From assembly GCF_900103365.1 (NCBI RefSeq), contig NZ_LT629703.1, positions 6,000,501 to 6,064,500 on the forward strand: a stretch of 64,000 nucleotides of DNA, read 5' to 3'. How positions within the stretch are numbered: position 1 is the first letter of the stretch; every line of letters starts with the position of its first letter. The position numbers and the translations under genes were made by a program. This document shows positions 24,693 through 46,878 of the stretch, piece after piece. This DNA comes from Afipia sp. GAS231. GTDB taxonomy: Bacteria; Pseudomonadota; Alphaproteobacteria; Rhizobiales; Xanthobacteraceae. The notes beneath the pieces are model-generated. The model saw nothing but the letters and a program-made list of their open reading frames with translations. It had not been told where the DNA came from and ran no database searches.

Positions 24693-25472
24693 TTACCGCA
24701 ACGCCGCCAGTAATTCGTCGGGCGCTTCGACCATCATCATGTGGCCGGCGCCCGGCAGCACCACGGTGCGTGCGTTGGGCGTCGCCGCGGCGAGAGTCTT
24801 GCCGGCCTTGGCCGGTGTCATCATGTCGCGTTCGCCGAGAACGAACGTGGCGGGCACCTTGACCTGCGCGGCCGCAGCCAGCGCGCCCTGATAGGCATTG
24901 CAGGCGTTGAGATCGCTATACAGCACGCCCGGACGCGACTGCTGCAACACGCGCTGCGCGCCCTGATGCATCCACAGGCCCGGCGCGAGACTGCCGCCGA
25001 GTTCAGCCGCGAAGCCGAGGCCCCAGATCGAGACCATGTCGTAGGCGTCAGCGCTGTTGGCCTCGGCGGCCTTGAGCAGATCGGGGCCGACCGTCATCGT
25101 CGCGGCGGTGCCGATCAGGCCGAGACCCGAGACCTTGTCCGGATGCCGCGCCGAGCTCTCGAGCGCGATCAGCGAGCCCATGGAGTGGCCGATCAGCTTG
25201 GCCTTCGGCGCGCCGGCAGCGTCGAGCAAAGCCGCGGTCCAGTCGGCCATGTCGGCGATGGTCGGCAGCGCCGCACCGGACGAACGGCCATGCGCCGGCA
25301 AGTCCGGCGCCAGCACGGAAAAACCGTGATGGGCGAACCAGCGGCTGTGCAGCGCCCAGGTCGAATGATCGAAGCCGGCGCCGTGCAGCATCACGACGGC
25401 AGGCAACGCCGGATCGAACGGACGGCCGCCGGTGGCAACGAACGTATCAATTCCATTCACGGAAAGCTGCAT
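24693..25472 (-). CDS. Alpha/beta hydrolase
   Basis: The 259-residue alpha/beta hydrolase has the oxyanion loop VVMLHGAGFDHSTWALHSRWF, the nucleophile elbow GHSMGS (catalytic Ser), an acid region and the terminal histidine in LPGAGHMMMVEAPDELL. It is the last gene of the minus-strand series nicA-nicB-pncB-metY-hydrolase, starting three bases after the metY stop, which implies co-translation. In a nicotinate operon it might hydrolyse an ester or amide precursor, but this is speculation; the sequence shows only the fold. Confidence 0.85.
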   Translation of the reverse strand: MQLSVNGIDTFVATGGRPFDPALPAVVMLHGAGFDHSTWALHSRWFAHHGFSVLAPDLPAHGRSSGAALPTIADMADWTAALLDAAGAPKAKLIGHSMGSLIALESSARHPDKVSGLGLIGTAATMTVGPDLLKAAEANSADAYDMVSIWGLGFAAELGGSLAPGLWMHQGAQRVLQQSRPGVLYSDLNACNAYQGALAAAAQVKVPATFVLGERDMMTPAKAGKTLAAATPNARTVVLPGAGHMMMVEAPDELLAALR

Positions 25473-25475
25473 GGC

Positions 25476-26771
25476 TCACACCTTCTGCGACGCGCGGAGC
25501 GCCTGGCCGAGATCGTCGATGATGTCGGACACCGTCTCAATGCCGACCGACAGCCGCACCAGTTCCTCGCCGATGCCGGAGGCCTTGAGCTGTGCGGCGT
25601 CCATCTGCTGATGCGTGGTGCTGGCGGGGTGAATCACCAGCGTCTTGGCGTCGCCGACATTGGCGAGATGGCTGATCATCCGCAGCGTCTCGATGAACTT
25701 CTTGCCGGCAGGCCGGCCGCCCTTGATGCCGAAAGAGACGATCGATCCGGCGCCGCGCGGCAGCAGCCGCTTCGCCAGCTCGTGATCGGGATGGCTCTCC
25801 AGTGCGGGATGCAGCACCCACTCCACCGCCTTGTTGGCGGTGAGGAATTCGAGCACCGTGAGCGTATTGGTCATATGGCGCTCCATTCGCACGCCGAGCG
25901 TCTCGACGCCCTGCAGCAACTGGAACGCATTGGTCGGCGAAAGACACGCGCCGAAATCGCGCAACCCTTCGGTGCGGGCGCGCATAATGAAGGCGGCCTG
26001 GCCGAATTGCTCGTCGAAGACGATACCGTGATAGCCGGCATAGGGCTCGGTCAGAACCGGGAATTTGCCTGACGCGTGCCAGTCGAACCGGCCGCCGTCG
26101 ACGATGACGCCGCCGATCGCGATACCGTGGCCGCCGATCCATTTGGTCGCGGAGTTCATCACGATGTCGGCGCCGAGCTCGATCGGGCGGCTGAGAAACG
26201 GCGTCGCAAAGGTGTTGTCGATCAACAACGGAATTTTGGCGTCATGCGCGATCTGCGCCACCGCCGGAATATCCAGCACTTCCAGCCCGGGATTGCCGAT
26301 GGTCTCGCCGATCAGCAGCCGCGTATTCGGCTTGATCGCGGCGCGGAATTCGTCGAGCGCGCGGGGCTTGACGAAGGTCGTGGTGATGCCGAAGCGCGGT
26401 AGCGTGTGCGCCAACAGGTTGATGGTGCCGCCATAGAGCGAGGAGGAGGCGACGATGTGGTCTCCGGCGTTGAGGAGCGTCGCGATCGCCAGATGCAGCG
26501 CGGCCATGCCGCTCGCGGTGCAGACCGCGCCGACGCCAGCTTCCAGTGCGGCCAGCCGCTCTTCGAGCACCGCGGTCGTCGGGTTTGAGATGCGCGTATA
26601 AATGTGCCCGGCGCGTTCGAGGTTGAACAGCGCGGCGGCGTGATCGGAATCCTGAAACACATAGGATGTGGTCTGGTAGATCGGAACCGCGCGGGCGCCG
26701 GTTGCGGGATCCGGGCGCTGGCCGGCATGCAGGCTCAGCGTTTCAAAGGCAGGCGGCTTGGGTGCGGGCAT
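25476..26771 (-). CDS. metY: O-acetylhomoserine aminocarboxypropyltransferase-type PLP enzyme (MetY-like)
   Basis: The 431-residue Cys/Met-metabolism PLP enzyme starts FETLSLHAGQRPDPATGARAVPIYQTTSYVFQDSDHAAALF, characteristic of O-acetylhomoserine sulfhydrylases. The PLP-binding lysine is in NSATKWIGGHG. Insertions relative to cystathionine gamma-synthases give the longer MetY length. The enzyme would make homocysteine from O-acetylhomoserine and sulfide, or add another thiol. It lies 45 bases downstream of pncB on the same strand, so it may ride in the nicotinate operon without being part of the pathway. Confidence 0.9.
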   Translation of the reverse strand: MPAPKPPAFETLSLHAGQRPDPATGARAVPIYQTTSYVFQDSDHAAALFNLERAGHIYTRISNPTTAVLEERLAALEAGVGAVCTASGMAALHLAIATLLNAGDHIVASSSLYGGTINLLAHTLPRFGITTTFVKPRALDEFRAAIKPNTRLLIGETIGNPGLEVLDIPAVAQIAHDAKIPLLIDNTFATPFLSRPIELGADIVMNSATKWIGGHGIAIGGVIVDGGRFDWHASGKFPVLTEPYAGYHGIVFDEQFGQAAFIMRARTEGLRDFGACLSPTNAFQLLQGVETLGVRMERHMTNTLTVLEFLTANKAVEWVLHPALESHPDHELAKRLLPRGAGSIVSFGIKGGRPAGKKFIETLRMISHLANVGDAKTLVIHPASTTHQQMDAAQLKASGIGEELVRLSVGIETVSDIIDDLGQALRASQKV

Positions 26772-26816
26772 GCGGAACTCGTTAGCTCGATGGGTCTTGA
26801 ATGGAGTTGCGGCGGT

Positions 26817-28182: not shown

Positions 28183-31100
28183 TCAGCGCGCGATATCCTG
28201 CCGGATACGGCCAATCGCCGCATGAATATCGGTCCAGGCCGGCTTATCCGGGGCAAATTGCCGCCGCAGGTAGGACGCCAGTTCGGCGACCTGGTCGTCG
28301 GTAAAACTGTCTTTAAAGGCCGGCATATAGCCGAGGTCGGACGACGCCGGTGCAGCAATGCCATGGAGGATGACCTGAACCAGGTTGTCCGGATGGGCGC
28401 TGTGCAGATTGCTGTTCAGCGCCAGCGACGGCCGGCTGCCGAACAGCGGCGCGCCGCCGACCTCGTGACATACCGCGCAGGCGCCCTGGTAGAGCCGGGC
28501 ACCGACGCTCGCGGCCGCCGATGTCCTCGTGCTGCTCGCGGCTTCGAGTTTCGCGGCGAGAGTATGTTGATCGATGGCGGTCTCGTTGAAGGAAGCGAGA
28601 TAGACCGCCATGGCGCGGATGTCCTGGTCGGGCAGCGCGCCCAACTCCTTCACGACCGGCGCCATCGGTCCGGCCGCCACACCATGGAAGCGGGATTCGC
28701 CGGAGCGCAAATAGGCGAACAGTTCGTCTTCGTTCCACGGGATCGGTGCTTGCGACAGCGATGTCAGAGCTGGCGCTTCCCAGCCTTCGGCAAACCCGCC
28801 GGCGAGATAGGCGTTCGCCTGCTCTGCGCCGAGCGCGTTGCGCGGCGAATGGCAGGCGCTGCAATGGCCAAGGCCTTCGACCAGATAGGCACCGCGATTC
28901 CAGGTCTCGGATTTAGCCGGGTCGGCCTGGAACACGGCAGACTTGTGGAACAGCGCATTCCATCCCGCCAGCAGCGGACGCAGGTTGAACGGGAACGCCA
29001 ACGCGTTTGGCTTGGCCTCCGTGCGCACCGGCGATTGCGCCATCAGATAGGCATAGAGCGCCTGCAGGTCGGCATCGCTGGTCCTGGCGAAATGCGGATA
29101 CGGAAACGCCGGATAGAGCTGCTTGCCGTCGCGATGGATGCCTTCGCGCATCGCGCGTTCGAAAGCGGGATACGACCACGCGCCGATGCCGGTTTCGAGG
29201 TCGGGTGTGATGTTGGTCGAATAGATCGTGCCGAACGGCGTCTGCAGCGGTCGGCCGCCGGCGTTGAGAATGCCGCTCGCGGAGGTGTGGCACACCGCGC
29301 AATCGCCGAGCGCGGCGAGTTGCTGGCCGCGGGCGATCGTCGCCGCCGAATAGACCGAGGCATCCGGCCGCGCGATCGGCGCGATCGATCGCCATGGCAG
29401 CACGGCAGTGCCGATGCCGACCACAGCGGCGCACAACGCTGCGGCGGTTGCCAATACGCCGCGACGAACCGAAAACGGATTCTGCCATGTGCGAGAAGGC
29501 GGCGGCGCGGAAGCAGGTGCTGGCAATGCCTCCGGTGAGGCGGGCGCATCACCGCGCAATCCCTTCAGGATGCGTTCCGGCGTGAACGGCAATTCGCGAA
29601 ACCGCACGCCGGTCGCGTCAAAGATCGCATTGGCGATGGCGGCGGCGCTGGGGACGGATGCGGACTCGCCGACACCGAGCGGCGGCTGGTCCTGCCGCGG
29701 CAGCATCAGCACGTCGATCTTGGGTACGTCCGGAAATTTGATGATGGGGTAGGCGCCCCATTCGCGCGCCGTCACGGACGAGCGGTCGAACGACACTTCC
29801 TCCATCAGCGCGCGGCTGGTCGACTGGATGACGTTACCGTGAATCTGGTGACGAACACCGTCCGGGTTGATCATCAGGCCGGAATCCTGCCCGGCGACGA
29901 CGCGGGTAACGCTGACATCGCCGGTCGCCCTGTTGACGGCGACGTCGGCGATCCATGCCGACCATGCTGCGCCGTAGCCCGGAAACTTGCTGTGGACGTA
30001 CAGCGCGTAGGCGAAACCGCGCCCGCGCACGATATCGCCTTCGGCTTCGGGCTGCTCGCGAACCGGCCGCGGCTTCCAGCCTGCGCGCTCGGCAACGGCA
30101 TTGACGAGATCGATCGCACGCGCGTCCTTCAGATAGCGCAGGCGATACTCGATCGGATCGACGCCGGCCTCGGATGCGACCTCGTCGATCCAGGATTCAT
30201 GGGCGAACGTATTGGGCAGCGCCGAGACGCCGCGCAGCCACGAAGCGCGCACGATCGGCGGCATGTCGTGTACGACCACGCGCAGGTTGTCGTAGTCATA
30301 GGGCGGGATCGCGGTGCGGTCGCCCATCTCAAGCACGGCGGGCGTGTTCGGGACTTCGCCGGTCAGCAGCAGCGCCAGCGTCGGCGCGCCGTTCGAGGGA
30401 TAGCGCGTCGCAAAGTCATAACCGGCGACGCTGCCATCGGCGTTCACCCCGCCATTGACATCCATCAACTGCGCCGTGCCCTTCGGCTCCCAGGCGTGCT
30501 CCTGCTCGCGGGTCAACTGCACGCGGACGGGGCGGCCGACGGCGCGCGACAGCAGCACGGCATCGGCGGACACGTCGTCCGCGCAGTTGCGGCCGTAGCA
30601 TCCGGCGGCTTCCAGCCGGATCACCTCGATTTCGGCTTCCCGCCGATGGATCAGCCGCGCCAGTTCGGTGCGCAGATGGTGCGGGTTCTGCGTGCCCGAC
30701 CAGACCCGGGCCTGGTCGTCCTGATAGTCGGCAACCGCGCAGGAGGGACCGATCGAGGCGTGCATCTGGTACGGCCAGACATAGGTCCGCGGCATCGGCT
30801 TGGCGGCGCCTGCAATCGCCGCATCGACGTCGCCTTTGTCGATCAGCGTCCGCGGCTCGGAAGGATTGGCGCGCAACGCCGTCGGGATGTCGCCGAGATC
30901 GGGCAGGACAGGCGTCGGCTTCCACGTTACCTTCAACTGCGCGGCCGCCTTGATCGCGTTCTCCTCGCGCTCGGCGACGACGCCGACGAAGTCACCGATC
31001 CGAACCACCGCGACCAGCCCTGGAATATCGCGCACCGAGGCTTCATCGACCGCGATCAGGCTGGTGCCGACGAAATCACCGGCATCGACGCCGGCATAGG

Positions 31101-31734
31101 GCGGGCGCACGACGCGGCCATGCAGCATGCCGGGAACGCGGACGTCGTGAACGTAGACCAGTTCGCCGGTCGCCTTGGCCGGCAGATCGACGCGCGGCAC
31201 CGATTGCCCGACAATGGAATAGGTGCCGACGTCCTTCACGGGGATATCGTCGGTCAGTTCAAGCTGGATGGTGTCGCCTGCGATCAACTCGCCATAGCTG
31301 ACGCTGCGGTTATCCCTGCCGCGCACCAGGCCGTCTTCGATGGTGAGATCCTCGACCACAAGTTCCAGCCGCTCCGCCGCCCGCGCGATCAGAAATTGCC
31401 TCGCCTGCGCCGCCGCCTTGCGCAGCGGCACGGCCGTGATCTGAATGGTTTCGCTCGCGATCGTCGCGCCCTGGTTCGGAACGCGCGAGGTATCGCCGAG
31501 CACGACGATGACGCGGGCAAAGGACACGTCGAGCTCTTCGGCGACGATCTGCCCCAGCGCGGTACGGATGCCGGTGCCGAGATCGACATGACCGTTATAG
31601 GCGGTGACCGATCCGTCTGACGTGATCTTGATGAAAGTCTCGAACTTGACGGCTTCGACAGGAGAGGCGGGACGAACGACGGTCAGCGTTCCCTGCGGGC
31701 GTTCGTTCGTCGCGGGAGAGTCCGGCGCGGCCAT
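28183..31734 (-). CDS. nicB: Nicotinate dehydrogenase-like large subunit: molybdopterin domain fused to three cytochrome c domains
   Basis: The 1183-residue fusion begins with a xanthine-dehydrogenase-type molybdopterin domain (about residues 20-745; GHVDLGTGIRTALGQIVAEEL; a catalytic-type Glu in GVGESASVPSAAAIANA). One transmembrane segment follows near 759-781, then three haem-c motifs C812AVCH, C958SACH and C1086AVCH. This order and length match NicB of Pseudomonas putida, which with NicA hydroxylates nicotinate to 6-hydroxynicotinate and passes electrons to the membrane cytochrome chain. The ATG at 31734 overlaps the nicA stop (TGATG). Neighbouring hnr, ena and pncB support nicotinate as substrate. 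Another N-heterocycle or an aldehyde remains possible, because similar fusions exist for other substrates. Confidence 0.82.
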   Translation of the reverse strand: MAAPDSPATNERPQGTLTVVRPASPVEAVKFETFIKITSDGSVTAYNGHVDLGTGIRTALGQIVAEELDVSFARVIVVLGDTSRVPNQGATIASETIQITAVPLRKAAAQARQFLIARAAERLELVVEDLTIEDGLVRGRDNRSVSYGELIAGDTIQLELTDDIPVKDVGTYSIVGQSVPRVDLPAKATGELVYVHDVRVPGMLHGRVVRPPYAGVDAGDFVGTSLIAVDEASVRDIPGLVAVVRIGDFVGVVAEREENAIKAAAQLKVTWKPTPVLPDLGDIPTALRANPSEPRTLIDKGDVDAAIAGAAKPMPRTYVWPYQMHASIGPSCAVADYQDDQARVWSGTQNPHHLRTELARLIHRREAEIEVIRLEAAGCYGRNCADDVSADAVLLSRAVGRPVRVQLTREQEHAWEPKGTAQLMDVNGGVNADGSVAGYDFATRYPSNGAPTLALLLTGEVPNTPAVLEMGDRTAIPPYDYDNLRVVVHDMPPIVRASWLRGVSALPNTFAHESWIDEVASEAGVDPIEYRLRYLKDARAIDLVNAVAERAGWKPRPVREQPEAEGDIVRGRGFAYALYVHSKFPGYGAAWSAWIADVAVNRATGDVSVTRVVAGQDSGLMINPDGVRHQIHGNVIQSTSRALMEEVSFDRSSVTAREWGAYPIIKFPDVPKIDVLMLPRQDQPPLGVGESASVPSAAAIANAIFDATGVRFRELPFTPERILKGLRGDAPASPEALPAPASAPPPSRTWQNPFSVRRGVLATAAALCAAVVGIGTAVLPWRSIAPIARPDASVYSAATIARGQQLAALGDCAVCHTSASGILNAGGRPLQTPFGTIYSTNITPDLETGIGAWSYPAFERAMREGIHRDGKQLYPAFPYPHFARTSDADLQALYAYLMAQSPVRTEAKPNALAFPFNLRPLLAGWNALFHKSAVFQADPAKSETWNRGAYLVEGLGHCSACHSPRNALGAEQANAYLAGGFAEGWEAPALTSLSQAPIPWNEDELFAYLRSGESRFHGVAAGPMAPVVKELGALPDQDIRAMAVYLASFNETAIDQHTLAAKLEAASSTRTSAAASVGARLYQGACAVCHEVGGAPLFGSRPSLALNSNLHSAHPDNLVQVILHGIAAPASSDLGYMPAFKDSFTDDQVAELASYLRRQFAPDKPAWTDIHAAIGRIRQDIAR

Positions 31735-32225
31735 CAGCTCTGCGCCTCGACGACATGGCCGGCGGCGCGCATCGCCGCGCGCATGATTTCGATATGGGCG
31801 CCGCAGCGGCAGAGATGATGACGCAGCGCTTCCATCACCTCTTCCTCGGAAGGCCGGGCGCTGCGATTGAGCAGCGCTCGGGTCGTGATGATCATGCCGT
31901 TCAGGCAATAGCCGCATTGCGCGGCCTGTTCGCTGATGAAAGCCTGTTGCACGGGATCGGGATGTTCGCGCGTGCCGAGCCCTTCGAGCGTCACGATATC
32001 GCGCCCGGTGCAGCCCTCGATCGGGATGACGCAGGAGCGCGCCGCGACGCCGTCGATCAGTACCGCACAGGCGCCGCATTCGCCGAGCCCGCAGCCATAT
32101 TTCGGTCCGTTCAGAGCGAGGTCGTTGCGCAAGACGTAAAGCAGCGCGGTGTCGGGAGCGGCGTCGACGTCGCAGGTCTTGCCGTTCACGGTCAGGCGCA
32201 TCTTGCTCTGCGTCATGCTTCCCAT
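31734..32225 (-). CDS. nicA: Nicotinate dehydrogenase-like small subunit, 2 x [2Fe-2S]
   Basis: The 163-residue iron-sulfur protein carries a plant-type [2Fe-2S] motif YGCGLGECGACAVLIDG with a fourth Cys in ARSCVIP, and a second alpha-helical cluster motif QCGYCLNGM ... LCRCGAH. This is the standard small subunit of xanthine-dehydrogenase-family hydroxylases. It would relay electrons from the molybdopterin site to the cytochromes of the large subunit. Start codons at 32225 and 32216 are both possible. It is the first gene of the minus-strand operon, with a promoter and an operator-like palindrome at 32268-32295 immediately upstream. Confidence 0.88.
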   Translation of the reverse strand: MGSMTQSKMRLTVNGKTCDVDAAPDTALLYVLRNDLALNGPKYGCGLGECGACAVLIDGVAARSCVIPIEGCTGRDIVTLEGLGTREHPDPVQQAFISEQAAQCGYCLNGMIITTRALLNRSARPSEEEVMEALRHHLCRCGAHIEIMRAAMRAAGHVVEAQS

Positions 32226-32267: not shown

Positions 32268-32295
32268 AAGATACCGTTTGTGTACAAACGTGCAA
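32268..32295 (-). promoter_or_regulatory. Putative nicA promoter
   Basis: On the minus strand TTGCAC (32295-32290) and TATCTT (32273-32268) are separated by 16 bases and resemble -35 and -10 boxes. The palindromic motif at 32275-32290 fills the spacer, so a bound repressor would block RNA polymerase. The distance to the nicA start is about 43 bases. Confidence 0.5.
32275..32290. promoter_or_regulatory. Operator-like palindrome CGTTTGTGTACAAACG (nicA side)
   Basis: Arms CGTTTG and CAAACG flank a TGTA centre. It shares the pattern TTYG-TGTA-CRAA with the sites at 32429-32442 and 46034-46063. Its size and symmetry suit a MarR-type dimer, and a marR gene ends the facing operon. Confidence 0.6.
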
Positions 32296-32427: not shown

Positions 32428-32428
32428 C

Positions 32429-32503: not shown

Positions 32504-33952
32504 ATGACCGACGTTTCGACCGCCGCCATCGGCGACAAGATCCGCTGCGATGCCTGTCCGGTGATGTGCTACATCAAGCCGGGCGCGGCGGGCGCGTGCG
32601 ATCGCTATGCCAATCACGACGGCGAACTGGTGCGCGTCGATCCGCATATCGTGCTGGAGCGAACGGTGTCGCATGGCGGACGGCTGGTGCCGTTCCAGGC
32701 CGGCGGCGACTGGGATGGCAAGCTGGTTCACGAGCCCAGCGTGTTCGTGACCGCGATCGGCGCCGGCACCACCTATCCCGATTACAAGCCGGCGCCCTTC
32801 ATCGTTTCCTCCGAGATCGACGGCGTCGACATGGTCACGGTCGTGACCGAAGGCATTTTCAGCTATTGCGGCGTCAAGGTGAAGATCGACACCGATCGCT
32901 ATCTCGGCCCGGAAACCGCGACGGTGCGGGCGCAGGGCGAGGCGATCGGCCATGTCACCACCAGCGAATACGGCTCGCAGATGCTGTCGCTCGGCGGCGT
33001 GCACCATCTGACCGGCGGTTCCAAGAAGGAAGGCCGCGTCACCTGCGATGCGCTGATGGACCTCTCCAATTGCAAGCCGGTGGAGCTGACCATCGATGGC
33101 GGCGCCACGGTCGTGGTGCAGGCGGGCTATCCGCCGATCGTCAACGGCGTGCCGGAAGAGCGGATGCGGGTGGGGTGCGGTTCGGCCACCATCGGCATGT
33201 TCGCCAAGCAATGGCAGGGCAAGGTCGACGAAGTCGTGGTCGTGGACGACCACATCACCGGCGTGCTCAGTGAGCATCAGGCCGGCAAGCTGCTCGATAT
33301 TCCCGATACCGGGATCAAGATGAAGGGCCGGCGCTCGACGCCGGGCCGTTACTTCCAGGTCGCCGAGCCCGGCACCGGCTGGGGCGGCACCAAAATTTCC
33401 GATCCGCTGTCGGTGCTGGGCCCGTTCGACCCGAAGGAAGCAAGACCGGGGCTCACGATGCTGATGGTCTCGACCACCGGCGAGCATGCCGCCTATTACG
33501 AACTCGACGAGGCCTTGCGTCCGGTCGAGAAGCAGATGCCGCTCGATCTGAAACTCTCGGTCGAACGCATTCAGGAAAATTGCGAGCCGGCAATGTGCAC
33601 GGTGCTGTTCATGGGCGGCGCCGGCGGCTCGCTGCGCGCCGGCGTGACCGATAATCCGGTGCGGCTGACGCGGTCGGTGAAGGACGCGCTGACCCGGGTC
33701 ACCAGCGGCGGCGCGCCGGTTTACGTCTGGCCCGGCGGCGGCATCACCTTCATGGTCGACGTCACCCGGATGCCGGCCGGCGCCTTCGGTTATGTGCCGA
33801 CGCCGGCGCTGGTCGCGCCGATCGAATTCACGCTCAAGCTCTCTGACTACGCCGTCCTCGGCGGCCATATGGACCATGTGGTTCCATTGGCGTCGCTGCG
33901 CGACAATACCGAAACCCGGCCAATGCCGACCATTCCGGGGCGGGGCGCATGA
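32504..33952 (+). CDS. hnr: 6-hydroxynicotinate reductase
   Basis: The 482-residue protein has an N-terminal cysteine cluster IRCDACPVMCYIKPGAAGACDRYANHDGEL, suited to an iron-sulfur centre. Further conserved-looking cysteines lie in FSYCGVKVKIDTDRY, VGCGSATIGMF and ENCEPAMCTVLFMGG. I recognise it as the family of Hnr from the Eubacterium barkeri nicotinate gene cluster, which reduces 6-hydroxynicotinate to 1,4,5,6-tetrahydro-6-oxonicotinate with reduced ferredoxin. A divergent nicotinate hydroxylase upstream and an enamidase 12 kb away supply the steps before and after, which strongly supports the call. It heads a plus-strand operon and overlaps the next gene by four bases. The start ATG at 32504 lacks a strong ribosome binding site. 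Confidence 0.82.
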   Translation: MTDVSTAAIGDKIRCDACPVMCYIKPGAAGACDRYANHDGELVRVDPHIVLERTVSHGGRLVPFQAGGDWDGKLVHEPSVFVTAIGAGTTYPDYKPAPFIVSSEIDGVDMVTVVTEGIFSYCGVKVKIDTDRYLGPETATVRAQGEAIGHVTTSEYGSQMLSLGGVHHLTGGSKKEGRVTCDALMDLSNCKPVELTIDGGATVVVQAGYPPIVNGVPEERMRVGCGSATIGMFAKQWQGKVDEVVVVDDHITGVLSEHQAGKLLDIPDTGIKMKGRRSTPGRYFQVAEPGTGWGGTKISDPLSVLGPFDPKEARPGLTMLMVSTTGEHAAYYELDEALRPVEKQMPLDLKLSVERIQENCEPAMCTVLFMGGAGGSLRAGVTDNPVRLTRSVKDALTRVTSGGAPVYVWPGGGITFMVDVTRMPAGAFGYVPTPALVAPIEFTLKLSDYAVLGGHMDHVVPLASLRDNTETRPMPTIPGRGA

Positions 33953-34876: not shown

Positions 34877-35461
34877 ATGAGCGCGATCATTCGCAAAATC
34901 GTCACGGTGGTCGAAGAGACCCATCTGGAGATGGGGCAAAAGGTCGCGCCGCCGACCCGGCGCGCGGCGGCGATCGCCGTGATCGAAAACCCGTTTGCCG
35001 GCCGCTATGTCGAGGACCTTTCGCCATTGATCGCGATCGGCGAGGAGCTCGGCGAACTGCTGTCGAAAAAGGCGGTGGCGGCGCTCGGGATCGACGGCGC
35101 CAAGGCGCACAGTTACGGCAAGGCCGCCGCGGTCGGCGAAAACGGCGAACTCGAACACGCGGCAGCGATCTTGCATCCCAAGATGGGCGCGCCAGTGCGC
35201 AAGGTGCTGGGCAAGGGAGCGGCGCTGATCCCGTCATCGAAGAAACGCAGCGGCCCCGGAACCACGCTGGATATTCCGCTCGGCCACAAGGACGCGGCGT
35301 TCGTGCGCAGTCATTTCGACGGCATGGAAGTGCAGATCAACGACGCGCCGCGCGCCAACGAGATCATGGTCGCGGTGGCGGTGACCGACAGCGGCAGGCC
35401 ATTGCCGCGTGTCGGCGGATTGACGGTTTCTGAGGTCAAAGGCGAAGACGGTTTGAGATAG
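34877..35461 (+). CDS. DUF1185 / AA_synth family protein
   Basis: The 194-residue protein (IIRKIVTVVEETHLEMGQKVAPPTRRAAAIAVIENPFAGRYVEDLSPLI ...) matches the amino-acid-synthesis (DUF1185) family, soluble proteins with an AroH/YjgF-like fold that often accompany amidohydrolases and ABC transporters. ENPFAGRY, HSYGKAAAVGENGE and SSKKRSGPGTTLDIPLGHKDAAFVRSHFDGMEVQINDAPR look like the conserved blocks. No enzymatic activity is established for the family as far as I know. It lies 19 bases after the UPF0280 gene inside the hnr operon, so it may act on a pathway intermediate. Confidence 0.75.
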   Translation: MSAIIRKIVTVVEETHLEMGQKVAPPTRRAAAIAVIENPFAGRYVEDLSPLIAIGEELGELLSKKAVAALGIDGAKAHSYGKAAAVGENGELEHAAAILHPKMGAPVRKVLGKGAALIPSSKKRSGPGTTLDIPLGHKDAAFVRSHFDGMEVQINDAPRANEIMVAVAVTDSGRPLPRVGGLTVSEVKGEDGLR

Positions 35462-36984: not shown

Positions 36985-38871
36985 ATGGCCTTTTATGTCG
37001 TTCAGTTCCTGACCGGTCTTGCCAGCGCGGCGTCGCTGTTTCTGGTAGCATCAGGGCTGTCGATCATTTTTGGCGTCACGCGAATCGTCAACTTCGCCCA
37101 TGGCGCGTTCTATATGCTCGGCGCCTATGTCGCGTTCACGCTGACCGAGCGGTTTTCCGGCGCGCTCGGCTTTTGGGGCGGCGTTGTCGCCGCCGCGCTG
37201 ATCGTCGCCGCCGTCGGCGTCCTCGTCGAGATGGTGCTGCTGCGGCGGATCTATCATGCGCCGGAACTGTTCCAGTTACTGGCGACCTTTGGCCTGACCC
37301 TGATGGTCGAAGACCTCGTGGTTCTGATCTGGGGACCGGACGATCTGCTCGGCCGCCGCGCGCCCGGCTTCAAAGGCGCGATCGATTTCTTCGGCCAGAA
37401 CATCCCGAGCTACGACCTGTTCCTGATCGCGCTCAGCCCGGTCGTGCTCGGAATCCTGTGGTTGCTGTTCCAGCGCACGCGCTGGGGCGTGCTGGTGCGC
37501 GCGGCGACGCAGGACCGCGACATGGTGGCGGCGCTCGGCGTCAATCAGAAATGGCTGTTCACCAGCGTGTTCGCGCTCGGCGTCTTTCTCGCCAGCCTCG
37601 GCGGCGCGCTGCAGATCCCGCGCGACGCCGTGCATCACGCGCTGGACTTGCGGATCATCGTCGACGTCTTCGTCGTGGTCGTGATCGGCGGGCTCGGCAG
37701 CATCATCGGCGCCTTTGTCGCCGCGGTGCTGGTGTCCGAACTCAACGCCTTCGGCATCCTGATTTTTCCGAAGATCTCCATCATCCTGGTGTTCCTGGTG
37801 ATGGCGGTGGTCTTGATTGTGCGTCCCTGGGGCCTGTTCGGCAAACCGGAAGCCGCAGCGCGGCGAACGCCCGGCCTGACGGTTAATCCGTGGCGGCCGC
37901 TGACGTCGAACGAACGGCTGGCTTCGCTTGGCGCGCTGATGGTGGCGGCGGCGCTGCCGTTCGTGGCCGGCAATTACGCGCTGACAGTCGGCTCCGAGAT
38001 CGCGATCTTCGTGATCTTCGCCGCCAGTCTCCACTTCCTGATGTCGGTCGGCGGGCTGGCCTCGTTCGGCCACGCCGCCTATTTCGGCCTCGGCGCCTAT
38101 GGCGTTGCGTTCCTCGCCAAGCTGGCGGGATTGCCGATGATCGTCTCACTGCTGCTCGGTCCGCTGCTGGGCCTGCTCGGTGCCGCGGTGTTCGGCTTCT
38201 TTGCCGTGCAATTGTCAGGTGTCTACTTTGCGATGCTGACGCTGGCCTTTGCGCAGATCGTGTGGTCGATCGCGTTCCAGTGGGTTACGGTGACCGGCGG
38301 CGACAATGGCATTCTGGGAGTCTGGCCGGAGAAATGGGCGGCGAGCCCGTCGAGCTTCTATTGGTTGTCGCTCGCCATCGCCGCGCTTGCGGTCGCGGTA
38401 TTGCGCATCATCGTGTTCTCGCCGTTCGGGTTTGCACTCCGCGCCACACGGGATTCCCCGCTGCGCAGCGAGGCGATCGGCATCAACGGCAAACGCGTGC
38501 AGTGGACCGCCTTCGTCATCGCGGGCACCGTCGCCGGCATTGCCGGCGCGCTGTTCGCGTACCTCAAGGGCAGCGTTTTCCCGGATAACCTTGGTATATC
38601 CCTTTCCGTCGATGCGCTGGTCATGGTGCTGCTCGGCGGTGTCGAGACGGTCTCCGGTGCGGTCGTCGGCGCCATCGTCTACAAGGCGCTCAACATCTGG
38701 CTGGTCAGCCAGACCGATCTCTCCAAACTGGTATTGGGCGGCTTCATCGTCCTGATCGTGGTGGTTTTCCCGAAGGGCATCGTCGGCATGCTGGAGACGA
38801 TCAAAAACCGCCGGCGATCTTCTGCGTCGAAGTCGGCATTGCTGACATCCCGGATCGAGACTGCCGAATGA
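36985..38871 (+). CDS. Fused branched-chain-type ABC permease (LivH-LivM)
   Basis: The 628-residue protein joins two permeases normally encoded separately. The LivH-like half (about residues 1-290) contains LSIIFGVTRIVNFAHGAFYMLGAYVAF and AATQDRDMVAALGVNQKWLF. The LivM-like half (about 310-628) contains GLASFGHAAYFGLGAYGVAFLAK and ALRATRDSPLRSEAIGINGKRVQW. Each half has its EAA-type loop. Fused LivHM permeases are known in rhizobia. Start at ATG 36985; no strong ribosome binding site precedes it. The stop overlaps the LivG-like gene by four bases. Confidence 0.9.
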   Translation: MAFYVVQFLTGLASAASLFLVASGLSIIFGVTRIVNFAHGAFYMLGAYVAFTLTERFSGALGFWGGVVAAALIVAAVGVLVEMVLLRRIYHAPELFQLLATFGLTLMVEDLVVLIWGPDDLLGRRAPGFKGAIDFFGQNIPSYDLFLIALSPVVLGILWLLFQRTRWGVLVRAATQDRDMVAALGVNQKWLFTSVFALGVFLASLGGALQIPRDAVHHALDLRIIVDVFVVVVIGGLGSIIGAFVAAVLVSELNAFGILIFPKISIILVFLVMAVVLIVRPWGLFGKPEAAARRTPGLTVNPWRPLTSNERLASLGALMVAAALPFVAGNYALTVGSEIAIFVIFAASLHFLMSVGGLASFGHAAYFGLGAYGVAFLAKLAGLPMIVSLLLGPLLGLLGAAVFGFFAVQLSGVYFAMLTLAFAQIVWSIAFQWVTVTGGDNGILGVWPEKWAASPSSFYWLSLAIAALAVAVLRIIVFSPFGFALRATRDSPLRSEAIGINGKRVQWTAFVIAGTVAGIAGALFAYLKGSVFPDNLGISLSVDALVMVLLGGVETVSGAVVGAIVYKALNIWLVSQTDLSKLVLGGFIVLIVVVFPKGIVGMLETIKNRRRSSASKSALLTSRIETAE

Positions 38872-39659
38872 GCATGGTCCCCACATTGCTGTCGGTCGAA
38901 GGCTTGAGCAAGTCCTATGGCGGCGTGCATGCTGTGCGGGGCGTGTCGTTCGAACTGCGTGCCGGTGAAATCCTGGCGCTGATCGGGCCCAATGGTGCTG
39001 GAAAAAGCACCTGCTTCGACATGCTCAACGGCCAGAACATTCCGGATAGCGGCAAAATCCGTTTGCTCGGCGAGGACACCGCGGGCCGGAAGCCGCGTGC
39101 GATCTGGCGGCTCGGCGTCGGGCGTACCTTCCAGATCACGGCGACGTTCCCGACCATGACAGTGCGCGAAAACGTGCAGGTCGCGCTGGTTTCGTATGGC
39201 AAGCAATTGTTCAATCTGTGGACGTCGACCGCGGCCTACGCGCGCGAGGAAGCCGGCCGGCTGCTCGATCTCGTCGGCATGGGCGCCTATGCCGAGCGCC
39301 CCTGCGGCGAACTCGCCTATGGCGATCTCAAGCGTCTTGAGCTTGCGATCGCGCTCGCCAACCAGCCGAAGCTGCTCCTGATGGATGAGCCGACCGCCGG
39401 CATGGCGCCGCGCGAGCGCATCGAGCTGATGCGGCTGACCGCGCGCATCGCCCGCGAACAGTCGATCGGCGTGCTCTTTACCGAACACGACATGGACGTG
39501 GTGTTCGAGCATGCCGACCGCATCCTCGTGCTCAACCGCGGCACCCTGATCGCCGAAGGCTCTCCGGAAGAAGTCCGCGGCAATCCGCAGGTGCGCGCGA
39601 TCTATCTCGGCGAAGGCCTAGTCTATGACGCGCGCCACCGCGAGGGAGCCGGTGCATGA
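38868..39659 (+). CDS. Branched-chain-type ABC transporter ATP-binding protein (LivG-like)
   Basis: The 263-residue ATPase has Walker A GPNGAGKST, a LivG-type stretch GRTFQITATFPTMTVRENVQVAL, signature LAYGDLKRLELAIALA and Walker B LLLMDEPTAGMAPRER. The degenerate signature (YGDLKR instead of SGGQ) is usual for LivG. Starts in an ATGA overlap with the permease and itself overlaps livF by four bases. Confidence 0.92.
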   Translation: MSMVPTLLSVEGLSKSYGGVHAVRGVSFELRAGEILALIGPNGAGKSTCFDMLNGQNIPDSGKIRLLGEDTAGRKPRAIWRLGVGRTFQITATFPTMTVRENVQVALVSYGKQLFNLWTSTAAYAREEAGRLLDLVGMGAYAERPCGELAYGDLKRLELAIALANQPKLLLMDEPTAGMAPRERIELMRLTARIAREQSIGVLFTEHDMDVVFEHADRILVLNRGTLIAEGSPEEVRGNPQVRAIYLGEGLVYDARHREGAGA

Positions 39660-40360
39660 AGCTCACGGTGAAGGATCTCAACAGCTTTTACGGCCCGGCG
39701 CACATCCTGTTCGATATCGCGCTCGAAGTCGGCGACGGCGAAGTGGTCGCGCTGCTCGGCCGCAACGGCGCCGGCAAGTCGACCACCTTCCGCTCCATCG
39801 TAGGATTGGTGCAAAACCGTTCCGGGCAGATCGTGTTCGAAGGCAAGGACGTCTCGACCGAGCCGACGCATGCCATCGTGCGCGGCGGGCTCGGCTATGT
39901 GCCGGAGGAGCGGCGGATCTTCACGGATCTCACGGTCGAGGAAAACCTCGAGGTCGGCAAGCAGCCGAAGCGGCCAAACGCGCCATATTGGACGCGCGAA
40001 AAATTGTTCACGCTGTTTCCGAATCTGGGCGAAATGCGCAACCGCCCGGGCGGACGCATGAGCGGCGGCGAGCAGCAGATGCTGACGATCGCGCGGACGC
40101 TGATGGGCAATCCCTCGCTGGTGCTGCTCGACGAACCCTCGGAAGGCCTGTCGCCAAAAATCGTCGAGCAGATGGTCGATGCGATCCTGGCGATGAAGAA
40201 AGAGGGCGTCAGCATCGTGGTGTCCGAACAAAACCTGCATTTCGCGCGGTTGATTTCGGATCGCGCCTACATCATCGAACGCGGCAAGATCTGTTTCGGC
40301 GGCACGATGGCCGAACTCGACGCGCGGCCGGATATCCGGGACGCGCATCTGTCATTGTGA
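39656..40360 (+). CDS. Branched-chain-type ABC transporter ATP-binding protein (LivF-like)
   Basis: The 234-residue ATPase has Walker A GRNGAGKST, GLGYVPEERRIFTDLTVEENL, signature MSGGEQQMLTIARTLM, Walker B LVLLDEPSEGLSPK and the switch region VVSEQNLHFA. These are typical LivF features. It completes the importer of the hnr operon. Confidence 0.92.
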   Translation: MKLTVKDLNSFYGPAHILFDIALEVGDGEVVALLGRNGAGKSTTFRSIVGLVQNRSGQIVFEGKDVSTEPTHAIVRGGLGYVPEERRIFTDLTVEENLEVGKQPKRPNAPYWTREKLFTLFPNLGEMRNRPGGRMSGGEQQMLTIARTLMGNPSLVLLDEPSEGLSPKIVEQMVDAILAMKKEGVSIVVSEQNLHFARLISDRAYIIERGKICFGGTMAELDARPDIRDAHLSL

Positions 40361-40392: not shown

Positions 40393-40848
40393 ATGGGAAG
40401 GGGTGCTTTGCCGAAACGGAGCGTCAAGCCGCAGAGGCCGTCCTACATTCTCGACGAGCAGATCGGCTTCATCCTGCGCCAGGTCTGGCAGCGCCATGCC
40501 ACGATCTTCGCCCGCGAAATCGGCATCAACCTGACGTCGGCGCAGTGGGCGGCGCTGGCGAAACTGACCGAGACCGGGCCGTGCTCGCAGAATTTGCTGG
40601 GGCGGCTGACCGCGATGGACGTCGCCACCATCAAGGGCGTGATCGATCGCCTCACCGCACGCGGCCTGACCGAGACCAGCCCCGACCCGGAAGATGGCCG
40701 CCGCCTGCTGGTCAGCCTCACCCGCGCCGGCCAGCAACTGGCCGAGAAGGCCGCGCCGAACGCGCTGGCGATCACCAAGGAAACGCTGGCGCCGCTCGAC
40801 GCCAAGGAGCGCGAGACGCTGATGGTGCTGTTGAACAAGCTGCGGTGA
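40393..40848 (+). CDS. MarR family transcriptional regulator
   Basis: The 151-residue winged-helix regulator has the MarR core ILRQVWQRHATIFAREIGINLTSAQWAALAKLTETGPCSQNLLGRLTAMDVATIKGVIDRLTARGL, with the wing DPEDGRRLLVSLT. It lies 32 bases after livF and so appears to be the last gene of the hnr operon. In other bacteria nicotinate degradation is controlled by MarR repressors that sense 6-hydroxynicotinate (NicR, BpsR). I infer that this protein binds the TTYGTGTACRAA sites at the nicA/hnr and ena/fpr promoters. A duplicated piece of its 3' end is found at 43114-43254. Confidence 0.9.
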   Translation: MGRGALPKRSVKPQRPSYILDEQIGFILRQVWQRHATIFAREIGINLTSAQWAALAKLTETGPCSQNLLGRLTAMDVATIKGVIDRLTARGLTETSPDPEDGRRLLVSLTRAGQQLAEKAAPNALAITKETLAPLDAKERETLMVLLNKLR

Positions 40849-43005: not shown

Positions 43006-43019
43006 TTGGTGTGTACCAA
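43006..43019. promoter_or_regulatory. Palindrome TTGGT-GTGT-ACCAA upstream of the SBP56-like gene
   Basis: Five-base perfect arms around GTGT, 22 bases before the SBP56-like ATG on the minus strand. The core GTGTAC is shared with the nic/ena sites, but the arms differ, so it may be a different operator or chance. Confidence 0.3.
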
Positions 43020-43113
43020 CCTGGCTCAGCGGCATGCAGCAGAACTAACCGGGCTCGTTGATTCCTCTTGCGATGCCGCCGGCTGGGTTCGCTTGTAGTG
43101 ACCATACACCCCC

Positions 43114-44749: not shown

Positions 44750-45949
44750 CTAATGCCCACTCACGATCTCCGGCACCCGTCCCGCCGGCGGGGTGTTGCG
44801 GCTGCGCTGGGTGCGGACGATGCCGTCGATGATGGTCATGCCGATGCCGGGCAGGTCGCCGAGCTGCACGCTGTGCAGGATGTTCCGGCCTGGCGAATGC
44901 TGCGCCATGTCCATGATGACGAAGTCGGCCGAGCGGCCGACTTCGATGATGCCGCAATCCAGTTCGCGCATCCGGGCGGTGTTGCCGGTGGCGAGGCAGA
45001 AGGCGATTTCCGCCGGGAGTTCGCCGAGCGACGACAGCAGCGACACCATGCGCAGGATGCCGAGCGGCTGCACGCCCGAGCCGGCCGGAGCATCAGTGCC
45101 GAGAATGACGCGGTGAAGATCGCCCATCTCGCGCGCGACGCGTAGCGTAAACAGCGCCGAGCGCTCGTTGCCGTTGTGAACCAGTTCGAGGCCGCGCTTG
45201 CAGCCCTCACAGATGCAGCGGATCTGATCGTCGGGCAGGGCGGTATGGCCGCCATTGATGTGGCCGACCACGTCGGTGTCGGCTTCCAGCACCACGTCCT
45301 TGTCGATCAGGCCGGAGCCGGGGATCGAAGGCCCGCCGGTGTGGATGGTGCTCTGGATGCCGTATTTGCGCGCCCAGCCCACCATCTTGCGCGCGGTCGG
45401 GCCGTCCTTGACGCCGCCGAGGCCGACTTCGCCGAGCAGCTTGACGCCGGCCGCGGCCAATTCCTTGAAGTCGTCCTCGACCATCTCGCATTCGATCACC
45501 GGCGCGCCGGCATGCACCTTCACGCCGCCGGGCCGCAGCGTCCAGAACGAGCGCTGCGCGAAGATCGCCATCGCCTTGAGGCCGACGACGTCGCGCGGCC
45601 GGCCGGGCATGTGGACTTCGCCCGCCGAGATCATGGTGGTGACGCCGCCATGCAGATAGCTGTCGATCCAGTTGATCTGGTTCTGCCGCGGCGTCCAGTC
45701 GCCCGCTACCGGATGGACGTGGCTGTCGATCAGGCCGGGCGCGACCGTGGTGCCGTTGGCATTGACCACGGTGGTGGCACCTTCGGTATCGACGTCTTTG
45801 AAGCGGCCGATCGCGGTGATCTTGCCGTTCTCGGCCACGATGGTGTCGGCATCGAGGATCGGCTTTTCCAGCGCCCCTGACAGCAACAACCCGATATTGC
45901 GGATCACCAGCTTGCTCGGGCCGGTTGCCTGGGGTGCGTCATGGGCCAT
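44750..45949 (-). CDS. ena: Enamidase (1,4,5,6-tetrahydro-6-oxonicotinate amidohydrolase)
   Basis: The 399-residue amidohydrolase has metal-ligand motifs DSHVHP, GEVGLG, HTGGPSIPGSG, HINGGHTALPDDQI and GTDAPAGSGV. The run of GGVTTMISAGEVHMPGRP, RPGGVKVHAGAP and the C-terminal RNTPPAGR closely follows what I remember of Eubacterium barkeri enamidase. That enzyme hydrolyses the enamide ring of 1,4,5,6-tetrahydro-6-oxonicotinate to 2-formylglutarate plus ammonia. AAGGA lies eight bases before the ATG 45949; a longer in-frame start at 45994 is less likely. It is divergent from fpr, with a double operator-like palindrome between them. With hnr in the window this gives two consecutive pathway steps. 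Confidence 0.85.
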   Translation of the reverse strand: MAHDAPQATGPSKLVIRNIGLLLSGALEKPILDADTIVAENGKITAIGRFKDVDTEGATTVVNANGTTVAPGLIDSHVHPVAGDWTPRQNQINWIDSYLHGGVTTMISAGEVHMPGRPRDVVGLKAMAIFAQRSFWTLRPGGVKVHAGAPVIECEMVEDDFKELAAAGVKLLGEVGLGGVKDGPTARKMVGWARKYGIQSTIHTGGPSIPGSGLIDKDVVLEADTDVVGHINGGHTALPDDQIRCICEGCKRGLELVHNGNERSALFTLRVAREMGDLHRVILGTDAPAGSGVQPLGILRMVSLLSSLGELPAEIAFCLATGNTARMRELDCGIIEVGRSADFVIMDMAQHSPGRNILHSVQLGDLPGIGMTIIDGIVRTQRSRNTPPAGRVPEIVSGH

Positions 45950-46033
45950 GGTTTTGTCCTTGTTGTTCAATGCCTTCGGAGCGCCGGAGACCATCTTGCC
46001 CGCGGCTTGACGCCGGGATCAAGAAGGATTATT

Positions 46034-46063
46034 CATTCGTACACGAATGATCGTGTACGAATG
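46034..46063. promoter_or_regulatory. Double operator-like palindrome between ena and fpr
   Basis: CATTCGTACACGA and TCGTGTACGAATG are perfect 13-base inverted arms around ATGA (14 bases counting the outer t-a pair). Each arm itself holds a copy of the TTCGTGTACGAA motif seen at the nicA/hnr promoters: TTCGTACACGAA at 46036-46047 and ATCGTGTACGAA at 46050-46061. It lies 84 bases from the ena start and 41 bases from the fpr start, well placed to control both genes. Confidence 0.65.
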
Positions 46064-46104
46064 ATTTTGCCGCCAATCTGGCCCGCACGTCAAGGAAACT
46101 GACG

Positions 46105-46878
46105 ATGAGCAATTTCAACCAGGAAAGCGTCCTCAGCGTCCACCACTGGACCGACACGCTGTTCTCCTTCACCACCACGCGCGATCCCTCGTTCCGGTTC
46201 AGGAACGGCGAGTTCACCATGATCGGGCTCAAGGTCGGCGAGAAGCCGCTGCTGCGCGCCTACAGCGTCGCCAGCGCCAATTACGAGGACCGGCTGGAAT
46301 TCTTCTCGATCAAGGTGCCGGATGGCCCGCTGACCTCGCGCCTCCAGCACCTGAAGCAGGGCGACGAGATCATCGTTAGCCGCAAGGCCACCGGCACGCT
46401 TGTCATCGACAACCTCGAAGACGGCCGCAACCTCTACCTGATCGGCACCGGCACCGGCCTCGCGCCGTTCCTGAGCGTGATCAAGGATCCCGAGACCTAT
46501 GAGCGGTTCGAGAAGGTGGTGCTGCTGCATGGCTGCCGCCGCGTCAAGGAACTCGCTTATGGCGAGATGATCACCGAGAAACTGCCGAACGACGAGTTGA
46601 TCGGCGACTACATCCGCAACCAGTTGATCTATTACCCGACCGTGACCCGCGATCCCTTCCGCAACCGCGGCCGCATCACCGACCTGATCAATTCGGGAAA
46701 ACTGTTCGGCGATATCGGGCTGGCCGCGCTCGATCCCGTGCATGATCGCGTCATGATCTGCGGCAGCCCGGCGCTGGTGGCCGACACCCGCACCCTGCTC
46801 AACGGCAAGGGCTTTGTCGAAGGCAACCACGGCGAGCCGGCGCAGTTCGTGGTCGAGAAGGCGTTCGCGGAGCGCTAG
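46105..46878 (+). CDS. fpr: Ferredoxin/flavodoxin-NADP+ reductase
   Basis: The 257-residue flavoprotein has the Fpr-type FAD motif RAYSVAS, the pyrophosphate-binding stretch EFFSIKVPDGPLTSRLQHLKQGD, the NADP motif LIGTGTGLAPFLSVI, and CGSPALVADTRTLLNGKGFVEG near the C-terminus. It moves electrons between NADPH and ferredoxin. AAGGAAA precedes the ATG. It shares the ena promoter region and its putative operator. Because Hnr is thought to use reduced ferredoxin, this enzyme is a good candidate for its electron supply; the ferredoxin is not in the window. Confidence 0.92.
   Translation: MSNFNQESVLSVHHWTDTLFSFTTTRDPSFRFRNGEFTMIGLKVGEKPLLRAYSVASANYEDRLEFFSIKVPDGPLTSRLQHLKQGDEIIVSRKATGTLVIDNLEDGRNLYLIGTGTGLAPFLSVIKDPETYERFEKVVLLHGCRRVKELAYGEMITEKLPNDELIGDYIRNQLIYYPTVTRDPFRNRGRITDLINSGKLFGDIGLAALDPVHDRVMICGSPALVADTRTLLNGKGFVEGNHGEPAQFVVEKAFAER

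What the first reader, a model, noticed from the sequence alone, without database searches (positions are those of the whole stretch)
24693..46878. A probable nicotinate catabolic regulon of the reductive (6-hydroxynicotinate reductase/enamidase) type in an alphaproteobacterium
The sequence shows, within 22 kb, a NicA/NicB-like hydroxylase, an Hnr-like iron-sulfur reductase, an enamidase-like amidohydrolase, a ferredoxin-NADP reductase, PncB, a MarR regulator and a complete importer. Established: P. putida NicAB makes 6-hydroxynicotinate; E. barkeri Hnr and Ena take it to 1,4,5,6-tetrahydro-6-oxonicotinate and 2-formylglutarate. Inference: these genes form one pathway here, mixing an aerobic-type hydroxylase with an anaerobic-type reductive ring opening. 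Genes for converting 2-formylglutarate to central metabolism are not visible, so further genes should lie elsewhere.
Basis: partly seen in the sequence, partly recalled or inferred. Interest (0 to 1): 0.85.

Follow-up and report, generated by a model that had tools for sequence, protein, structure and literature searches.

The report
Vitamin B3 breakdown cluster, reductive route
This soil bacterium carries a compact, probably jointly controlled gene cluster that likely breaks down vitamin B3 by a route already described in its relatives; two of its genes of unknown function look like constant helpers of the key enzymes, which can now be tested.

Summary
The genes are there; the pathway is well supported but not new. 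Ena aligns almost end to end with the solved Eubacterium barkeri enamidase. Hnr is 40% identical to the E. barkeri Hnr in the same locus as that enamidase. Shettigar et al. [quoted passage not shown] A 14-bp palindrome matches fully only three times in the 7.58-Mb genome, all in the nicA/hnr and ena/fnr promoters, so ena and fnr join the regulon.

New leads: (1) UPF0280, distant ApbE kin, occurs in the same 32 of 398 phylum genomes as Hnr, within 600 bp of it. In 3 of 3 genomes that also carry the DUF39 homocysteine enzyme there is a second UPF0280. (2) Hnr shows a weak similarity to DUF39 that beats controls; DUF39's essential cysteine aligns with an invariant serine. (3) PF06684 type A is in 18 of 18 enamidase-bearing Hnr genomes and 1 of 14 others.

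I infer that UPF0280 matures Hnr and PF06684-A works at the enamidase step. No activity was tested.

The parts
28183..31734 (-). nicB-like: molybdenum-cofactor large subunit with three haem c motifs
   Evidence: MoCoBD_1, MoCoBD_2, Cytochrome_CBB3; start and length; CxxCH at 812, 958, 1086
31734..32225 (-). nicA-like: [2Fe-2S] small subunit of the hydroxylase
   Evidence: NCBIfam matches to iron-sulfur subunits of xanthine dehydrogenase and kin, all below their own cut-offs
32276..32289 (.). operator copy 1, on the nicA side of the nicA/hnr intergenic region
   Evidence: GTTTGTGTACAAAC; one of three full matches in the whole genome
32429..32442 (.). operator copy 2, in front of hnr
   Evidence: GTTCGTGTACGAAC; 152-153 bp from copy 1 in 10 of 10 genomes of the genus searched, own included
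32504..33952 (+). hnr-like: 6-hydroxynicotinate reductase, core without the N-terminal ferredoxin domain of E. barkeri-type homologues
   Evidence: 40% to E. barkeri ORF in L039; start chosen from relatives; ferredoxin domains in E. barkeri-type homologues
33949..34857 (+). UPF0280 (COG2122), distant ApbE relative, overlapping hnr by 4 bp
   Evidence: NF003322 432.5 bits against cut-off 290; same 32 of 398 genomes as hnr
34877..35461 (+). PF06684 (AA_synth, DUF1185) protein, type A
   Evidence: PF06684 250.9 bits; PDB 2qtp E 1.5e-86; clade A in tree
35488..36690 (+). substrate-binding protein of the ABC importer
   Evidence: Peripla_BP_6; ATG start read
36985..38871 (+). fused permease of the ABC importer
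   Evidence: BPD_transp_2, two stretches
38868..39659 (+). ABC ATPase 1
   Evidence: ABC_tran, BCA_ABC_TP_C
39656..40360 (+). ABC ATPase 2
   Evidence: ABC_tran
40393..40848 (+). MarR-type regulator, candidate for the palindrome
   Evidence: MarR; binding not tested
44750..45994 (-). ena-like: enamidase
   Evidence: PDB 2vun E 1.4e-108 over residues 27-410
46035..46048 (.). operator copy 3, in the ena/fnr divergent promoter
   Evidence: ATTCGTACACGAAT
46049..46062 (.). operator copy 4, one mismatch, directly beside copy 3
   Evidence: GATCGTGTACGAAT
46105..46878 (+). ferredoxin-NADP reductase-like protein, candidate electron path to Hnr
   Evidence: PRK10926 156 bits, below its cut-off of 390; neighbour of hnr in L062 and L063

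Best explanation
An inducible catabolic regulon for nicotinate by the reductive route. The importer brings in nicotinate (inferred). NicAB hydroxylates it to 6-hydroxynicotinate and passes electrons to the respiratory chain through its haems (inferred from architecture). Hnr reduces the ring to 1,4,5,6-tetrahydro-6-oxonicotinate, probably with electrons from NADPH through the FNR-like protein and a ferredoxin encoded elsewhere (inferred). Ena opens the ring to 2-formylglutarate (inferred from homology). The MarR protein probably represses both divergent promoter pairs through the shared palindrome (inferred). The confidence below is for this pathway and regulon. Less certain parts: UPF0280 is a maturation factor for Hnr (about 0.6), most likely through its flavin (about 0.4); PF06684-A assists at or just after the enamidase step (about 0.55), most likely by hydrolysing or isomerising the enamine product.
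For: Ena to 2vun; Hnr, UPF0280, PF06684, NicA and Ena homologues together in E. barkeri L039; palindrome with 3 full matches in 7.58 Mb, all in this cluster, 0 for the reversed-pattern control; both copies between nicA and hnr kept at 152-153 bp in 10 of 10 genus genomes; Hnr and UPF0280 in the same 32 of 398 genomes; E. barkeri UPF0280 above the Pfam ApbE cut-off, 30.1 against 25.6; PF06684-A in 18 of 18 Ena-positive and 1 of 14 Ena-negative Hnr genomes; in G123 and G194 the PF06684 pair sits beside Ena on a contig other than that of Hnr; published pathway for the corresponding cluster (PMC3511419).
Against: No enzyme activity, induction or growth was tested. The window UPF0280 scores below the Pfam ApbE cut-off, 18.2 against 25.6; the ApbE target motif D-x-x-[ST]-G-A-[ST] is in 0 of 169 Hnr rows; [quoted passage not shown] E. 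barkeri Ena is described as bifunctional, doing the deamination itself (PMC9304392), so a separate enamine hydrolase may be unneeded. 14 of 32 Hnr genomes lack Ena at E<=1e-40, so Hnr does not always feed Ena. G386 has PF06684-A without Ena. 6 of the 9 relatives have 1 or 2 full palindrome matches away from the cluster. MarR was not shown to bind.
Confidence: 0.85

Rival explanations
1. UPF0280 delivers sulfur (persulfide) or helps build the iron-sulfur centre of Hnr rather than handling flavin, as proposed for the archaeal homologue MA1715.
For: MA1715 is called a sulfur trafficking protein in PMC12068725; COG2122 is needed with DUF39 for homocysteine synthesis in D. vulgaris (PMC5764234); Hnr has invariant cysteines C15, C18, C22, C32, C225 and C360 in 82 rows.
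Against: No cysteine is invariant in 39 UPF0280 sequences, and no column has cysteine in more than 12 of 39. In the (weak) alignment the essential DUF39 cysteine meets serine in Hnr, 168 of 168 non-gap rows.
Confidence: 0.3
2. The cluster acts on another pyridine acid (or 6-substituted nicotinate) and not mainly on nicotinate.
For: 14 of 32 Hnr genomes lack Ena, and several Hnr clusters carry a different NicA-containing hydroxylase (915 or 1016 aa in the three read), so Hnr-type clusters are not uniform. SG-6C feeds 6-chloronicotinate into the corresponding pathway.
Against: The window has the NicAB, Hnr and Ena set, and strain SG-6C with the corresponding cluster degrades nicotinate through 6-hydroxynicotinate (PMC3511419).
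Confidence: 0.1
3. PF06684-A is a second ring-opening hydrolase or a structural or regulatory companion, not an enamine hydrolase.
For: [quoted passage not shown] for the homologue HcdD no effect could be observed (PMC7913881); type B occurs with Hnr where Ena is missing.
Against: Type A tracks Ena rather than replacing it (18 of 18 with, 1 of 14 without).
Confidence: 0.45
4. The Hnr-DUF39 similarity is convergence or chance, and the shared UPF0280 neighbour reflects two unrelated clients.
For: HHalign probability only 19-21%; shallow profiles gave P 0.27; with columns set by the window sequence the score was 24.2, P 0.038, against a best control of 22.4 among 61; Hnr profile against DUF39 sequences best E 0.33 against 1.2 for the best decoy; Pfam HcyBio not listed for 10 Hnr proteins at E<=10, though HMMER's filters drop most weak matches; structure searches of both models found no shared solved fold.
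Against: Score 35.7 against 26.0 for the best of 100 scrambled controls and 21.2 for the best unrelated family; the DUF39 profile finds 60 of 169 Hnr rows at E<=1 against 0 of 338 decoys.
Confidence: 0.4

Closest known systems
Nicotinate degradation cluster of Azorhizobium caulinodans, B. japonicum USDA110, R. palustris HaA2 and Bradyrhizobiaceae SG-6C (Shettigar et al. 2012, PMC3511419; passages read)
   Same: As described in the text: Hnr (42% to E. [quoted passage not shown]
   Different: The passages I read give no role for the two unknowns and no operator. I did not align the window gene by gene with those records.
Eubacterium barkeri nicotinate locus (L039)
   Same: Hnr 40%, UPF0280 31%, NicA 39%, Ena 46%, PF06684 56% identity to the window.
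   Different: E. barkeri-type Hnr homologues have an N-terminal double [4Fe-4S] ferredoxin domain, absent in the window protein; the window has an FNR-like gene and haem-bearing NicB.
P. putida NicAB (recalled, not compared by sequence here)
   Same: Two-part hydroxylase with [2Fe-2S] subunit and MoCo subunit carrying three haem c motifs.
   Different: In Pseudomonas the ring is opened oxidatively (PMC9304392, passages); here reduction and hydrolysis are inferred.
DUF39 (COG1900, L-aspartate semialdehyde sulfurtransferase) with COG2122
   Same: UPF0280 gene beside it in L070 and L071; weak profile similarity to Hnr.
   Different: Essential Cys54 (PMC12068725) aligns with serine in Hnr; different reaction.

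Membership tests
Reductive (E. barkeri type) nicotinate pathway | 6-hydroxynicotinate reductase homologue | tested here: met
   40% over 457 aa to the E. barkeri ORF; activity not tested
Reductive (E. barkeri type) nicotinate pathway | Enamidase | tested here: met
   2vun E 1.4e-108 over residues 27-410; metal ligands not checked one by one
Reductive (E. barkeri type) nicotinate pathway | Genes taking 2-formylglutarate further | not tested
   no search was made for either the anaerobic or the glutarate branch
NicAB-type hydroxylase | [2Fe-2S] subunit plus MoCo subunit with c-type haems | tested here: met
NicAB-type hydroxylase | Sequence identity to P. putida NicAB | not tested
   no P. putida sequence was compared
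UPF0280 (PRK04334) | Score over the curated cut-off | tested here: met
   NF003322 432.5 bits against 290
ApbE FMN transferase | Pfam ApbE over cut-off | tested here: not met
   window protein 18.2 against 25.6; the E. barkeri homologue passes with 30.1
ApbE FMN transferase | A-D-x-x-A-T stretch shared with FAD:protein FMN transferases | tested here: inconclusive
   invariant A194 D195 A198 T199 line up with AD-x-x-AT of 6nxj, but that match is weak (sequence E 0.07, domain E 1.2); its metal-binding role is recalled
ApbE FMN transferase | Client carries D-x-x-[ST]-G-A-[ST] | tested here: not met
   0 of 169 Hnr rows; motif from PMC12052999
DUF39/COG1900 (HcyBio) | Pfam HcyBio match | tested here: not met
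   not listed for window Hnr or 10 E. barkeri-type Hnr at E<=10
DUF39/COG1900 (HcyBio) | Profile-profile similarity | tested here: inconclusive
   probability 19-21%, above all controls, weaker
DUF39/COG1900 (HcyBio) | Essential Cys54 | tested here: not met
   serine in 168 of 168 non-gap Hnr rows if the weak alignment is right
PF06684 | Score over the curated cut-off | tested here: met
   250.9 bits against 27

The most novel reading that the evidence does not exclude
6-Hydroxynicotinate reductase is a redox branch of the DUF39/COG1900 sulfurtransferase superfamily in which the essential cysteine became an invariant serine (Ser120 of the window protein), and UPF0280/COG2122 is the shared, client-specific modifying enzyme of the superfamily, attaching a flavin (or other group) at or near that position in Hnr; PF06684-A is the enamine hydrolase that completes the enamidase step.
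Probability: 0.25. Interest if true: 0.8.

Novelty: new member of a known kind. Interest (0 to 1): 0.5.

Why it matters
The pathway itself is on record, so the cluster is a further example. What matters is that two families without a settled function gain narrow, testable roles. UPF0280 goes with Hnr as tightly as a subunit would (the same 32 genomes among 398), and in the 3 genomes tested that also have DUF39 a second copy appears. This offers an aerobic system for asking what COG2122 proteins do, a question pursued so far, in the papers I saw, in methanogens and sulfate reducers. PF06684, known from solved structures, a guessed link to amino-acid metabolism and a reported helper role in trigonelline breakdown, is tied here to enamidase. 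The operator gives a ready reporter for the regulator of this cluster.

Tried and rejected
Hnr-UPF0280 fusion proteins: P0034, P0085 and P0094 carry both parts, but the joins read like frameshifts or deletions in assemblies (judged by eye), so they are not used as evidence.

Enoyl-CoA hydratase (43721-44578), SBP56 and its neighbour, PncB, MetY-like and alpha/beta hydrolase as pathway members: in L050 and L051 MarR adjoins Ena with no hydratase or SBP56 between. The hydratase was not found above 70 bits in any of 31 fetched stretches of 15-20 kb, but the nearest relative, G287, was not fetched across that interval. PncB and its neighbours are absent from L050, which covers the place; L051 stops too soon. 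Rejected as core members on this limited evidence; PncB beside the cluster remains plausible for salvage.

HHalign: one search was run in a wrong (global) mode and is not used. with shallow profiles gave P 0.27 at the same motif. One search, meant to add secondary structure, did not score it (column 0.0).

Covalent flavin in E. barkeri Hnr is recalled from the 2006 paper and could not be checked: the paper is not held, and in the 15 of 43 papers listed I saw none that reports it. Kitts 1992, Rauch and Perona 2016 and the trigonelline paper are not held. PMC12746152 and PMC12482172 held the terms only in reference lists. Paper searches answered: in an open-access library only. None of their listings showed a paper linking UPF0280 or PF06684 to Hnr or Ena, or Hnr to DUF39; most listed papers were not opened.

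One search used an unrelated family (PF02746), served to place the window and is otherwise unused. One search stopped at its last step for want of a window Ena row; the earlier tables stand. Rows dropped: Hnr of L041 and L043 (cut or mis-started) and of L009 and L010 (near copies of the window row), and proteins outside 470-530 aa, from the profile, which also took only every sixth of the close relatives P0002-P0120; L049 is not a true enamidase locus (25% identity); L043 ends about 200 bp after its Hnr match and cannot show UPF0280; a 40-residue PF06684 fragment in G159 was left out of the tree.
Full report
What is there. The window is bases 6000501-6064500 of a single 7.58-Mb contig. Named near relatives of its Hnr include Afipia and Bradyrhizobium proteins; the organism itself is not named. 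The nicB/nicA pair (28183-32225, minus strand) faces hnr (32504-33952, plus), followed by a UPF0280 gene overlapping by four bases, a PF06684 gene, a four-gene branched-chain-type importer and a MarR gene ending at 40848. Ena (44750-45994, minus) faces an FNR-like gene (46105-46878, plus). NicB carries three CxxCH motifs.

Tests of identity. Ena aligns with solved enamidase 2vun along residues 27-410, E 1.4e-108. With the 2vun sequence I fetched 11 named loci, 10 of them at 60-100% identity: nine Bacillota and one deltaproteobacterial assembly. In the E. barkeri locus L039 the window proteins find Hnr 40%, UPF0280 31%, NicA 39%, Ena 46% and PF06684 56%.

Prior art. Shettigar et al. 2012 (PMC3511419; [quoted passage not shown] they cite the 1989 and 1992 Azorhizobium papers for the reductive route in an aerobe. 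A 2022 paper (PMC9304392, passages) repeats the comparison.

Regulon. The two divergent intergenic regions share a palindrome. Written as RTTYGTRYACRAAY it has three full matches in the whole genome, all here: 32276, 32429 and 46035; the reversed-pattern control has none. The pattern was drawn from these sites, so the test is their absence elsewhere. A fourth, one-mismatch copy adjoins the third; with up to one mismatch the window has 4 matches against 0.20 expected, and 0 of 100 shuffles reach 4. At one mismatch the genome has 20 places, 4 of them here, against 10 for the control; the other 16 were not examined. In nine further genomes of the genus the nicA/hnr pair of sites is kept in 9 of 9 at 152-153 bp. 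Each has 1 or 2 further full matches: at ena/fnr in G287, G200 and G217, elsewhere in the other six, where the control pattern gives 0 to 1 (0 to 2 over all nine). In G035 and G111 the ena/fnr region holds near-matches.

UPF0280 and Hnr. Among 398 genomes of the phylum, 32 have Hnr and 32 have UPF0280: the same 32 handles, on the same contig within 600 bp of each other (in G167 a MarR gene lies between). Ten of them are one genus, so independent events are fewer (15 genera). UPF0280 also adjoins Hnr in 9 of the 10 loci L039-L048, the tenth ending about 200 bp after Hnr. In 17 genomes searched for both, 14 have one copy and no DUF39, and 3 have two copies and DUF39. The second copy adjoins DUF39 in 2 of those 3; in the third it is on another contig. 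The family is distantly ApbE-like: the E. barkeri member passes Pfam's ApbE cut-off, the window member does not. A profile of seven UPF0280 proteins finds PDB 2o34 at 1.2e-14; of its 13 other hits, all at E 0.05-1.4, 8 are FAD:protein FMN transferases and 5 are unrelated. In print, COG2122 is required with DUF39 for homocysteine synthesis and is called distantly related to ApbE without reaching its flavin-binding region (PMC5764234, passages), or a sulfur trafficking protein (PMC12068725, passages). No cysteine is invariant in the 39 UPF0280 sequences aligned.

Hnr and DUF39. Because both have a UPF0280 partner I compared them. Profile-profile score 35.7, P 0.0012, probability 19%; server comparison 35.9; best of 100 scrambled controls 26.0, reversed 16.8; best unrelated family against Hnr 21.2. 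A DUF39 profile finds 8, 35 and 60 of 169 Hnr rows at E 0.01, 0.1 and 1, against 0 of 338 decoys at each; the best rows are E. barkeri-type Hnr, and the window row itself gives no reportable domain. Against this: one search gave P 0.27 with shallow profiles, only 24.2 with the window as reference, an Hnr profile against DUF39 sequences was barely above decoys (best E 0.33 against 1.2), and Pfam HcyBio is not listed. In the aligned motif DUF39 Cys53, which I take to be the essential Cys54 of the literature (PMC12068725), meets Hnr Ser120, serine in all 168 non-gap rows of 169. I hold common descent at about 0.6.

Aerobic adaptation. E. barkeri-type Hnr homologues begin with a double [4Fe-4S] ferredoxin domain; the window protein has the CxxCxxxC stretch of the core at residue 15 and no such domain. 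The FNR-like gene shares the operator with ena and is the divergent neighbour of hnr in two distant genomes, L062 and L063. I infer that a separate NADPH-to-ferredoxin path replaced the built-in ferredoxin.

PF06684. Of the 32 Hnr genomes 18 have Ena at E<=1e-40 and 31 have PF06684. A tree of 59 PF06684 rows gives clade A (window type, 19 rows from 19 genomes, support 88/87) and clade B (28 rows, support 100/100), with six rows from the E. barkeri-type loci and six outlying rows. Clade A is in 18 of 18 Ena-positive genomes and in 1 of 14 Ena-negative ones, G386 (Fisher P 4e-8 without correction for kinship). In G123 and G194 the A and B genes adjoin Ena on a contig other than that of Hnr. In E. 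barkeri PF06684 starts 54 bp after Ena. A homologue, TgnF, is said to stimulate a semialdehyde dehydrogenase step of trigonelline breakdown (PMC7913881, passage, citing a paper not held). As far as I recall, E. barkeri and Azorhizobium share only the steps up to ring opening, so the common task is probably enamine hydrolysis or isomerisation rather than decarboxylation. This is inference.

Verdict.

Noticed in passing
window 47118-50407 (-): Sulfur-oxidation genes next to the cluster: an ORF with haem-binding motifs (47118-47945, no family search), SoxY, a cytochrome c and a flavocytochrome c sulfide dehydrogenase flavoprotein, followed by a MoCoBD protein at 50462-52651.
   Followed up: no
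window 41584-43035 (-) and 40913-41587 (-): SBP56 selenium-binding protein with an adjoining ORF that looks like a membrane protein (no family search), between the MarR gene and ena; both found in the relatives L067 and L068, not in L050 or L051.
   Followed up: partly
window 18055-20757 (+): A 900-aa ORF with a cytochrome P450 domain only in its C-terminal part (543-870); the rest has no Pfam match at E<=0.001.
   Followed up: no
L055, L058, L053 and similar: In several Hnr clusters, mostly of genomes without Ena, NicA-like and weakly NicB-like stretches lie directly in front of hnr; in the three read as ORFs they form one protein of 915 or 1016 aa. Its substrate is unknown.
   Followed up: partly
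L065 (G016), about 9324-10700: Hnr is found as two overlapping pieces in this genome, which may be a frameshift or an assembly error.
   Followed up: no
plasmids: Hnr homologues at 60-80% identity occur on 26 plasmid records, 12 of them Sulfitobacter and 4 Rhizobium, so hnr is also plasmid-borne.
   Followed up: no
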